Below, one piece after another: positions 5,465 to 18,200 of a stretch of DNA of 21,586 bases. A program made the translations under genes and the position numbers. Under the pieces are notes generated by a model. It saw only the letters and a program-made list of their open reading frames with translations, did not search any database and was not told where the DNA came from. Position 1 is the stretch's first letter; each line of letters starts with the position of its first letter. This stretch comes from a virus. Location of the stretch: positions 64,001 through 85,586 of the IMG/VR virus record IMGVR_UViG_3300032080_000003. One strand, 5' to 3'.

Positions 5465-5938
5465 ATGAAAACTATTTTAGAAAGATTCGAAGAAAAGTAT
5501 GAAGCTGTTACAGAGAGTGGTTGCTGGATTTGGACCGCAGCTTTGTGGATGGGAGGTAGGTATGGTTCATTTTGGGTAGATAAAGCGTTCAATAACGGGG
5601 CAATGTCTGGTGCTCATAGAGTTTCACTATATTTGTATAAAGGACTTAAACTAAGCACAGAAGAACACGCTTGTCATAAATGCGACAATACTTTATGTGT
5701 CAATCCAGAACATCTTTTTGTTGGTAGTCACTCTGACAATATGCAAGACATGTTGGATAAAGGTAGGTACGTAGCGCATAAACAAGTTTTATTTGAAGAT
5801 GATGTAGTAAAAGCTAAAGAACTGCGCTCGAAAGGTCAGAGTGTACGTAGTATTGCAAAAGAGTTTAATATCTCTGAAAGCCATATGAGTAGACTTCTGA
5901 GAGATGTGTACAACAGACATGATGCAAGAAAAGCTTGA
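5465..5938 (+). CDS. HNH homing endonuclease with C-terminal helix-turn-helix
   Basis: A 157-aa protein with the phage HNH_3-type layout. The order is GCWIWTAA near the start, a glycine/tyrosine-rich strand pair (GGRYG), GAHRVSLYLYKG (first His of the motif, 49-60), then HACHKCDNTLCVNPEHLFVGSHSDN in two parts (His68/Cys70/His71/Cys73/Cys78, then Asn80, His83) and MQDMLDKGR. Residues about 117-146 form a likely helix-turn-helix (SVRSIAKEFNISESHMSRLL), a DNA-recognition module often found in these enzymes. It lies between the nrdA terminator and the next promoter, so it looks inserted at an operon boundary. nrdA is intact, so this is a free-standing gene, not one in an intron splitting nrdA. 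Selfish spread to related phages is the known role of this family. Confidence 0.9.
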   Translation: MKTILERFEEKYEAVTESGCWIWTAALWMGGRYGSFWVDKAFNNGAMSGAHRVSLYLYKGLKLSTEEHACHKCDNTLCVNPEHLFVGSHSDNMQDMLDKGRYVAHKQVLFEDDVVKAKELRSKGQSVRSIAKEFNISESHMSRLLRDVYNRHDARKA

Positions 5939-8196: not shown

Positions 8197-8802
8197 TTGA
8201 AGCCTTACAACTCAAAAGCCCGAAAGTCAGATGGTTGGCCTAGATTCAACAGTGAAACTAAGAAAGGATTACCTGAAAGTAATGCTTGGAATACTATGCA
8301 TCAAAGATGTAATAACGTTCAAATAAAATTGAATACCAAGAATACAGCTTACTTAAGGGAGAATGCCAATGTATGTGATGAATGGTTCGACTACCAGAAT
8401 TTTGCACAATGGTGGAATTCTATAGAATATCGTGGAGATGACGGATGGTGTCTTGACAAAGACATTTTGGTAAAAGGAAACAAATTGTACTCGCCAGAGA
8501 CTTGCTGCTTTGTTCCAAGAGAGGTCAACATATTATTCATAAATAATCGTATTAACCGAGGAGAGTACCCTCTGGGTGTCTATATGCATCCTGTTAATAA
8601 GAATTATGTAGCCTCTCTTAGACGTGGAGACAGAAAAATAAGTCAACACCTAGGTTCTTTTAGTACAGTAGAAGAAGCTTTTTCTGTTTACAAAAGAGAA
8701 AAAGAAATCTTTATTAGAGAAAGAGCTGATAAATGGAAAGATCAATTAGATCCGCTTGTATACCAAGCAATGTTAAATTGGAAGGTGGAAATTACTGACT
8801 AG
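8197..8802 (+). CDS. HNH/AP2-type homing-endonuclease-like protein
   Basis: A 201-aa protein beginning at TTG 8197, with GGGAG 9 bases upstream. It contains WNTMHQRC (31-38), VCDEWFDYQNFAQWW (59-73), then GWCLDKDILVKGNKLYSPETC (84-103, in full match to the common phage HNH-like segment LDKDilvkgNkxYSPetCcFVP) and EVNIL. A C-terminal GVYMHPVNKNYVASLRRGDRK...LGSFSTVEEAFSVYKREKE (127-170) matches an AP2-type DNA-binding fold. The classical His-Asn-His ligand set is not obvious, so nuclease activity is less certain than for the gene at 5465. It is the last rightward gene before the convergent terminator, a typical insertion place for such mobile genes. Confidence 0.82.
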   Translation: MKPYNSKARKSDGWPRFNSETKKGLPESNAWNTMHQRCNNVQIKLNTKNTAYLRENANVCDEWFDYQNFAQWWNSIEYRGDDGWCLDKDILVKGNKLYSPETCCFVPREVNILFINNRINRGEYPLGVYMHPVNKNYVASLRRGDRKISQHLGSFSTVEEAFSVYKREKEIFIRERADKWKDQLDPLVYQAMLNWKVEITD

Positions 8803-17079: not shown

Positions 17080-17451
17080 TTAATTTACTGGGTTTATTGA
17101 GATGGGGGATGTAACCTCACCATTAACAACTTTAACTTTAAAGACAAGAGAGTATTGTCTATTCTGGAAAGTAGATTCAAAACTAACAATCTCCTTGACT
17201 CCAGTTTCTTCTAATATTTTTTGTTGGAATATTAAATCAATTCCAGACTTGGAAGCTTGTTTCTGTCCAAGCAACCTTTGCATGTATGGAACACCATATG
17301 TGGTGTCCATGAACCATTCCTCTTGAAATGTGAGGAGGCGAATCTTTAACCTTTGAGCTACTGTCTGTGTGAACGGCTGAGTAGTGTATTCTTTAGTTAA
17401 GGTTCCATTGTTCCACACTATATCGTGCTGATTACTCAGTAGAAAATCTAT
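17080..17451 (-). CDS. gp25-like baseplate wedge protein, probable AUA start
   Basis: The conserved body includes QTVAQRLKIRLLTF and EEWFMDTTYGVPYMQRLLG (about 48-66), typical of gp25/W and DUF2634-like wedge proteins. The first standard start codon is GTG at 17418, which gives 112 aa but has no ribosome binding site and cuts off part of the conserved N-terminus. The frame stays open upstream and reads DFLLSNQHDIVWNNG before the body, matching the family's usual xxDIxxxNGxL opening. AGGAAGG at 17464-17458 lies 6 bases before an ATA codon at 17451; starting there gives 123 aa. No ATG, GTG or TTG occurs in that frame between the spike stop and 17418; a CTG at 17439 lacks a ribosome binding site. 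Function in the wedge with baseplate J is well supported; the start is inferred. Confidence 0.85.
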   Translation of the reverse strand: MDFLLSNQHDIVWNNGTLTKEYTTQPFTQTVAQRLKIRLLTFQEEWFMDTTYGVPYMQRLLGQKQASKSGIDLIFQQKILEETGVKEIVSFESTFQNRQYSLVFKVKVVNGEVTSPISINPVN

Positions 17452-17457
17452 GATACA

Positions 17458-17464
17458 CCTTCCT
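17458..17464 (-). promoter_or_regulatory. strong ribosome binding site for the gp25-like gene
   Basis: AGGAAGG on the minus strand lies just after the stop of the spike gene (TAA at 17468-17466) and 6 bases before ATA 17451. ATC at 17454 is only 3 bases away. The GTG overlapping its end is out of frame and soon meets a stop. The site decides the start choice and points to a non-standard start codon. Confidence 0.65.
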
Positions 17465-17465
17465 A

Positions 17466-18200
17466 TTAATTACTTGGCGGTGGTGATTGACCGTGCTTGT
17501 GTGTGCTGAAGATAACTCCGTTGAAGGTTTGTACTCCAACCCCTGTATAATTACCCTGATGCGTAATCCCACCAATCCACAAAGTGTTCGCTACATCAAC
17601 AGTCATCTGCGGGCTGTTAAGATTGATGGCCTGACTTGCATTCACAGTAGCATTGGAACAGTTGATAGTGATAGGTTGATTGCTTGTATTAAGCTCAATA
17701 CTTCCATCAGCTTTAAGCCTTACTTCAACCTCTGTAGCTCCTAGATTAGCAAACATAACTGTGTCATTTGTATTGTGCGGAAGTACATGTTTCGCAGGAT
17801 TGTTTACAGCACTGCCGGGAGGTTGAATACCGGGATAAAATACGGCATCACCTTTATCCATCTTGGCAAAGTTTGTAGGCGTAGCTGGCCTACCGTTACC
17901 AGACTTCCAAGCTGTCATATCTCGCATAGAGAATACAGCCATCCCTGTGTCACCAGCTTTTATGGGGAAAGTCATGCCTGCTGTAGAGGACACAGGGAAA
18001 GCTACTGGAACACCAAGAATAGGAGGTCTTTCAGCTACAGTACCATCGGGAGTTTTTTGATTAATAGTGGGTTGAATATCCACCATTTGACCGGATAGAT
18101 TATCTCTTACAGCTACAACAATGCAAGGCATAGACGTATATAGATTATTCGCCTTGTCATCAAATACAGCACCTAGTAGTTCTTGAATATCAGCACTCAT
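17466..18200 (-). CDS. baseplate central spike, Gp138-type
   Basis: A 244-aa protein from ATG 18200, in an ATGA overlap with the hub gene. The N-terminal half (about 20-125: SMPCIVVAVRD, MVDIQPTINQKTPDG, PPILGVPVAFPVSS, FPIKAGDTGMAVFSMRDM) is the Gp138 N-terminal OB-fold domain known from phage phi92. Residues 135-232 are a strand-rich stalk (VEVRLKADGSIEL, ITINCSNATVNASQAINLNS). The tip reads FSTHKHGQSPPP with His234-x-His236, the motif that coordinates a metal ion at the point of phage and type VI spikes. It trimerises on the hub and pierces the outer membrane during contraction. Confidence 0.92.
   Translation of the reverse strand: MSADIQELLGAVFDDKANNLYTSMPCIVVAVRDNLSGQMVDIQPTINQKTPDGTVAERPPILGVPVAFPVSSTAGMTFPIKAGDTGMAVFSMRDMTAWKSGNGRPATPTNFAKMDKGDAVFYPGIQPPGSAVNNPAKHVLPHNTNDTVMFANLGATEVEVRLKADGSIELNTSNQPITINCSNATVNASQAINLNSPQMTVDVANTLWIGGITHQGNYTGVGVQTFNGVIFSTHKHGQSPPPSN

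What the first reader, a model, noticed from the sequence alone, without database searches (positions are those of the whole stretch)
17416..17468. gp25-like wedge gene appears to start at a non-standard codon, probably AUA
The frame upstream of the first standard start (GTG 17418) stays open and encodes DFLLSNQHDIVWNNG, which looks like the conserved opening of gp25-like proteins. A strong AGGAAGG sits 6 bases before an ATA codon at 17451, while GTG 17418 has no ribosome binding site. No ATG, GTG or TTG occurs in that frame between the upstream stop and 17418. AUA starts are very rare. If real, low initiation could hold this essential wedge protein at a set ratio to the abundant spike and baseplate J.
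Basis: partly seen in the sequence, partly recalled or inferred. Interest (0 to 1): 0.55.

Follow-up and report, generated by a model that had tools for sequence, protein, structure and literature searches.

The report
Phage gene starting at AUA
A phage tail-baseplate gene very probably starts at the unusual codon AUA, and relatives repeatedly use AUA, AUU or AUC at the same place together with an unusually strong ribosome-binding site, which suggests a balanced weak start that standard gene finders miss.

Summary
Observation confirmed; the AUA start is very likely real. The gene (minus strand 17451-17080) is a gp25-like sheath initiator. In 65 loci at >=50% identity (window included) the codon at this residue is ATG 28, TTG 13, GTG 8, ATA 8, ATT 5, ATC 3, and a solved relative begins at that residue. 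The 16 AUA/AUU/AUC ("AUH") loci share an extended Shine-Dalgarno: GGAGGTG in 15 of 16 against 0 of 49 others, at one fixed spacing. AUH and strong SD change together in 8 of 8 independent tree pairs at a cut-off chosen after seeing the data (median cut-off: 4 same, 0 opposite, 4 ties). The predicted SD helix crosses one bulged U and reaches the start codon in 13 of 16. Later additions: one more AUH locus fits; one GTG locus has a stronger SD than the window. The same signal precedes two unrelated phage gene families. Closest known: staphylococcal infC, cvfC1 and ccpN.

The parts
17080..17451 (-). gp25-like sheath initiator / baseplate wedge gene, 123 codons from ATA, stop at 17082-17080
   Evidence: PHROG phrog_120 baseplate wedge subunit E 1.6e-25 over residues 2-115; PDB 9zd7_K gp87 E 1.1e-28, profile position 1 = chain residue 1
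17449..17451 (-). ATA start codon
   Evidence: homologous start residue in 65 loci; AUH in 16
17452..17464 (-). Shine-Dalgarno AGGAAGG plus GTG and spacer TATC; predicted duplex with the 16S tail has one bulged A and one bulged U and reaches the start codon
17416..17418 (-). GTG, the first standard start in frame; rejected as the start
   Evidence: it lies 11 codons inside the conserved N-terminus and is not conserved
17466..18200 (-). upstream baseplate spike gene; stop codon 14 bases before ATA
   Evidence: the order hub, spike, gp25-like, wedge is annotated in Pseudomonas phage Bitten
15627..17069 (-). downstream baseplate J-like wedge gene, ATG start
   Evidence: its homologues served as a control

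Best explanation
Translation of the gp25-like gene starts at the AUA codon 17451 (read as fMet by initiator tRNA). The codon is a poor match to the anticodon, and an extended, start-proximal Shine-Dalgarno helix compensates for it; together with re-initiation after the spike stop 14 bases upstream this gives a moderate rather than high initiation rate. Shown by computation: the start residue, the AUH codons in relatives, the extended SD at fixed spacing, their joint change on the tree. Inferred: fMet decoding, helix formation in the ribosome, compensation, lowered rate. Unknown: any regulation through IF3.
For: Start codons at the homologous residue in 65 loci: ATG 28, TTG 13, GTG 8, ATA 8, ATT 5, ATC 3. 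Invariant D2 and L4 upstream of GTG 17418. In 13 distinct AUH 5' ends, codons 2-5 differ mostly synonymously: 146 synonymous against 62 other pairwise codon differences. L020 has stop, one codon, then ATT, no ATG in the gene, first TTG at codon 39; L004/L010 have a stop four codons before ATT. SD energy: 16 AUH -11.7 to -17.5, 49 others -3.7 to -11.5. GGAGGTG in 15 of 16 AUH against 0 of 49; aligned spacing 5 in all 16, -3 to 17 in the others. AUH needs 11 changes on the gp25 tree, at least 8 forced by well-supported branches; 8 of 8 independent pairs go the same way. PDB 9zd7_K starts at this residue. Extended SD with AUA/AUU gives about 10% of AUG in S. aureus reporters, up to 30% for ccpN in rich medium (PMC13009471, passages).
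Against: No peptide or ribosome data exist. All AUH gp25 loci are metagenomic; 12 isolate relatives looked at have ATG (11) or GTG (1), none AUH. The SD cut-off of -11.6 was chosen after the data; with the median as cut-off the pairs give 4 same, 0 opposite, 4 ties. Among 21 newly found loci one GTG locus (L205, -12.1) has a stronger SD than the window. L002 has an in-frame ATG six codons upstream of ATT, without an evident SD. The window's own SD is imperfect and partly paired in its predicted fold.
Confidence: 0.85

Rival explanations
1. The gene starts at GTG 17418 and the upstream frame is open by chance.
For: GTG is the first standard start in frame.
Against: It removes 11 residues with invariant D2, L4 and D10; GTG is not at that place in the other AUH loci, whose first standard start lies at codons 4 to 48; no SD by eye; the solved relative includes these residues.
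Confidence: 0.04
2. The ATA is a sequencing or assembly error for ATG.
For: One base difference; metagenomic record.
Against: 15 further AUH loci with three different third bases, from 13 IMG dataset numbers, including identical gp25 proteins in different datasets (L004/L010, L048/L050).
Confidence: 0.03
3. A T4-gene-25-like split ribosome-binding site: the SD serves GTG 17418, 39 bases away, through a hairpin.
For: T4 gene 25 has such a site: spacing 27 reduced to 11 by a hairpin (PMC3014915, passages).
Against: No common hairpin in seven AUH leaders folded; the distance to the next standard start varies from codon 4 to 48; it would lose the conserved N-terminus.
Confidence: 0.02
4. AUH is the start, but start codon and SD merely drift together at constant output; there is no selection for weak initiation.
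For: AUH is scattered on the tree, 11 changes against a shuffled mean of 12.7, and the SD follows each change: what compensatory drift would give.
Against: In the GGAGGTG context no locus has ATG, GTG or TTG (0 of 49), and no gp25 hit came from the DTG version of the pattern; one would expect some if drift were free.
Confidence: 0.35
5. AUH makes the gene an IF3-sensed switch, as proposed for infC and sigR.
For: IF3 represses non-canonical starts (PMC5472188, passages).
Against: No evidence here on IF3 or timing; sister phages with AUG/GUG/UUG evidently do without it.
Confidence: 0.15

Closest known systems
S. aureus infC (AUA), cvfC1 (AUU), ccpN (AUA) start sites with extended SD (PMC13009471, passages)
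   Same: AUA/AUU start, long start-proximal SD, conserved in relatives
   Different: Bacterial genes; the start codon class is conserved there, whereas in phage gp25 it flips repeatedly to ATG/GTG/TTG together with the SD; AUC also used
E. coli infC and pcnB (AUU) and Streptomyces sigR (GUC) (PMC5472188 passages; pcnB from a reference list in PMC13009471)
   Same: Non-canonical start limits translation
   Different: Regulatory or processing genes; IF3 control shown there, untested here
Bacteriophage T4 gene 25 split ribosome-binding site (PMC3014915, passages)
   Same: Same functional gene (gp25), unusual initiation region, conserved among close relatives only
   Different: T4 uses AUG with a hairpin-shortened spacer; here AUH with an extended SD at normal spacing and no common hairpin
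T4 gene 26 internal AUU start (recalled, not found in the library)
   Same: Non-AUG start in a phage baseplate gene
   Different: Internal start making a shorter product; here the main start

Membership tests
gp25-like sheath initiator / baseplate wedge | sequence match to the family | tested here: met
   phrog_120 E 1.6e-25; PDB sheath initiators. Pfam and NCBIfam gave no match at E 0.01
gp25-like sheath initiator / baseplate wedge | gene lies between spike and J-like wedge | tested here: met
non-canonical (AUH) start with extended SD | AUA/AUU/AUC at the homologous start residue | tested here: met
   16 of 65 loci
non-canonical (AUH) start with extended SD | extended SD | tested here: met
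   15 of 16 GGAGGTG; the window itself has GGAAGGTG, paired with one bulged A
non-canonical (AUH) start with extended SD | initiation shown at the codon, output below AUG | not testable with these tools
   needs reporter or ribosome profiling
IF3-regulated non-canonical start (infC type) | output depends on IF3 | not testable with these tools
   none
T4 gene 25 split ribosome-binding site | hairpin between SD and start | tested here: not met
   no common hairpin in seven single-sequence folds

The most novel reading that the evidence does not exclude
UAAGGAGGUG-U-RUY followed directly by AUH is a distinct phage initiation signal: the 16S tail pairs right up to the start codon across one bulged base and the helix stands in for codon-anticodon strength. 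It arose independently in unrelated phage genes (gp25, a PHROG phrog_32327 membrane-type protein, a tail-type protein) as a dosage dimmer, and gene finders truncate or miss such genes.
Probability: 0.4. Interest if true: 0.75.

Novelty: new variant of a known kind. Interest (0 to 1): 0.6.

Why it matters
Known AUU/AUA/AUC starts are few and mostly bacterial. Here a virion gene switches between standard and non-standard starts many times, and SD strength changes with it, so natural sister leaders form a ready-made series for measuring how SD pairing offsets a weak start codon. It also shows a systematic error: standard gene finding would begin these genes 4 to 48 codons too late.

Tried and rejected
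GTG within the SD (GGTG) as a start: it is out of frame, and in L055 the next codon is TGA (by eye). Readthrough or frameshift from the spike gene: the two frames differ between loci, and stops intervene. CTG 17439: other AUH loci have CTA, TTA, CTT, AAA, AAG or AAT-type codons there. AUC 17454: that codon is GTC, ATT, GTT, GAA, CTT or ACC elsewhere. Genome-wide use of AUH starts by this phage: the pattern GGAGGN{4,8}ATH gave 24 matches in its genome against 18 for the reversed control, so no sign of it. Neighbour genes as a control: 388 homologue rows of seven neighbouring genes; a standard start lies within eight codons of the aligned start in all but 4 rows (L003, L001, L075, L076: locus edge, broken or distant alignment); nine rows had AUH at the extrapolated codon but ATG next to it. 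This control is loose. Genome contigs gave only two distant hits. DTG version of the SD pattern: 18 stretches, no gp25. L093 from the first pattern is not gp25. In the validation set three loci (L195, L196, L199) were misaligned by the script; by eye their start is a GTG four codons upstream; their SD values were dropped. Two second-family loci (L286, L287) had no DP motif and L230 duplicates L108's contig; these were dropped. Literature: searches found no report of AUA/AUU/AUC starts for phage gp25 or for the other two genes; several were capped listings, and the library lacks most subscription papers.

Full report
What is there. The gene on the minus strand is a gp25-like sheath initiator: PHROG phrog_120 'baseplate wedge subunit', E 1.6e-25, and sheath initiators among solved structures, best 9zd7_K gp87, E 1.1e-28. 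Its neighbours are the spike (18200-17466) and a J-like wedge gene (17069-15627), the order annotated in Pseudomonas phage Bitten. The record is a virus contig of 85,586 bases.

Where the protein starts. tblastn relatives in IMG/VR share the opening [M/I]-D-F/L/I-x-L. In 65 loci of at least 50% identity, window included, the codon before that D is ATG 28, TTG 13, ATA 8, GTG 8, ATT 5, ATC 3. D2, L4 and D10 are invariant in the first 11 sequences aligned. A profile of these aligns position 1 with residue 1 (Met) of the solved gp87 chain. Twelve isolate relatives have ATG (11) or GTG (1) at or next to this residue. So 17451 is the homologous start, and GTG 17418 is not.

Why AUH is itself the start codon. 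The 15 AUH relatives bear 13 different IMG dataset numbers. In L020 the order is stop, CTT, ATT; the gene has no ATG, and the first TTG is codon 39. In L004/L010 a stop lies four codons before the second ATT. In L045, L046, L048, L050 and L052 the first ATG is codon 100. The third base is A, C or T but not G, while the flanking codons -1 and +2 onward vary as spacer or synonymous codons. L002 is the one AUH locus with a standard start upstream in frame (ATG, six codons, no evident SD).

The Shine-Dalgarno changes with the codon. Duplex energies with the 16S tail: AUH -11.7 to -17.5 (mean -15.7), ATG mean -8.6, TTG -8.7, GTG -7.5; the two groups do not overlap (U = 0, p 2e-9, not corrected for kinship). 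GGAGGTG occurs in 15 of 16 AUH and 0 of 49 other leaders; aligned spacing is 5 in all 16 and -3 to 17 in the others. On a tree of 57 distinct rows AUH needs 11 changes, at least 8 on starred branches, and is scattered almost as if shuffled (80 of 500 shuffles as low). In independent pairs that differ in codon class SD strength goes the same way in 8 of 8 (p 0.008) at a cut-off of -11.6 chosen after the data, 9 of 9 on a tree without the first 30 columns; with the median as cut-off 4 same, 0 opposite, 4 ties. A second scan gave 21 further contigs: one AUH (L192, ATC, -16.1) and 20 others, 17 with usable energies, of which L205 (GTG, -12.1) passes the cut-off. So the separation is near-complete, and the window, the weakest AUH locus, lies in the overlap.

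Anatomy of the signal. The commonest AUH leader is TAAGGAGGTG-T-RTY-ATH-GAY. In 13 of 16 the predicted duplex continues past one bulged U through RTY to the base before the start codon; RTY is at -3..-1 in 14 of 16 AUH and 7 of 49 others. Inference: the 16S tail pairs right up to the start codon, like the 'start codon proximal' extended SD seen by cryo-EM in S. aureus (PMC13009471, abstract and passages). Whether this fits sterically was not tested.

Beyond gp25. The pattern AAGGAGGTGTRTYATHGAY hit 19 stretches in IMG/VR: 9 gp25; 3 of another gene whose relatives begin MDPLT/MDPVT (phrog_32327, unknown function, hydrophobic C-terminus by eye); one possible (L118); six before short frames. In that second family 10 of 80 contigs have ATA at the homologous start, with stronger SDs on average (-11.9 against -5.2, p 6e-5, uncorrected); six of the ten are one close group, four have ordinary SDs, and ATG locus L228 has a strong one (-13.3). 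The exact string TAAGGAGGTGTATCATA hit 9 stretches: 4 gp25, 3 second family, 2 (L306, L307) a third gene with weak matches to tail proteins. For the third gene no homologous N-terminus was found, so its start rests on the SD and frame alone.

How it most likely works. Shown by computation: start residue, AUH codons, extended SD, covariation. Inferred: initiator tRNA reads AUH as fMet; the long SD helix offsets the weak codon; output is moderate. In S. aureus reporters AUA/AUU with extended SD gave about 10% of AUG, up to 30% for ccpN in rich medium (PMC13009471, passages). Whether output is selected to be low or merely held constant by compensatory drift is open; the lack of ATG/GTG/TTG in the GGAGGTG context (0 of 49) leans to the former, weakly. 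IF3 control (PMC5472188, passages; PMC10158994, passages) is possible and untested.

Known and new. AUH starts with extended SD are known in bacteria. T4 gene 25 itself has an unusual initiation region, a split site with a hairpin (PMC3014915, passages), but of another kind. I found no report of this in phage gp25 in searches of an incomplete library. I file it as a new variant of a known kind.

Noticed in passing
L001 1951-2925 (-), L002 2073-3005 (+), L015 2067-3017 (+), L044 2289-3017 (+), L055 2372-2983 (-) and the loci L019, L029, L030, L034, L058: The spike-gp25 junction carries 625-1046 extra bases in 10 of 65 loci (gap unknown for L061), mostly ORFs of 183-350 aa on either strand. Of five scanned, L001 passes the Pfam cut-off for CapR, L015 for DUF4379, MUG113 and T5orf172, L055 for HNH_3; L002 is sub-threshold, L044 has none. 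L019 shows only a 66-aa ORF. Looks like a homing-endonuclease hotspot.
   Followed up: partly
L108 8222, L111 1905, L117 12178, L226, L227, L229, L237, L256, L264, L278: Second phage gene family (phrog_32327) with ATA at the homologous start in 10 of 80 contigs; isolates such as Roseobacter phages CRP-9 and CRP-1 have ATG, CRP-2, CRP-4 and CRP-603 have GTG.
   Followed up: partly
L306 1398-370 (-), L307 821-3 (-): Third gene, tail-type protein, with TAAGGAGGTGTATC before ATA; start not confirmed by homology, and L306 has an in-frame TTG upstream.
   Followed up: partly
window 17451-17376 against L001: The gp25 proteins are 91% identical overall but differ in the first 25 or so codons and in the leader, where L001 carries an inserted ORF: a likely recombination or conversion tract.
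   Followed up: no
window 5465-5938 (+) and 8197-8802 (+): An HNH endonuclease gene directly after the ribonucleotide-reductase-like ORF, and a second ORF that looks like a homing endonuclease by eye but has no Pfam match.
   Followed up: partly
L101 and L100 (named phages): The annotated gp25 start in phage Boevelstad lies 12 codons upstream of the homologous ATG, and a Barbavirus record (barba_12-7I) has no gene annotated at this place.
   Followed up: no
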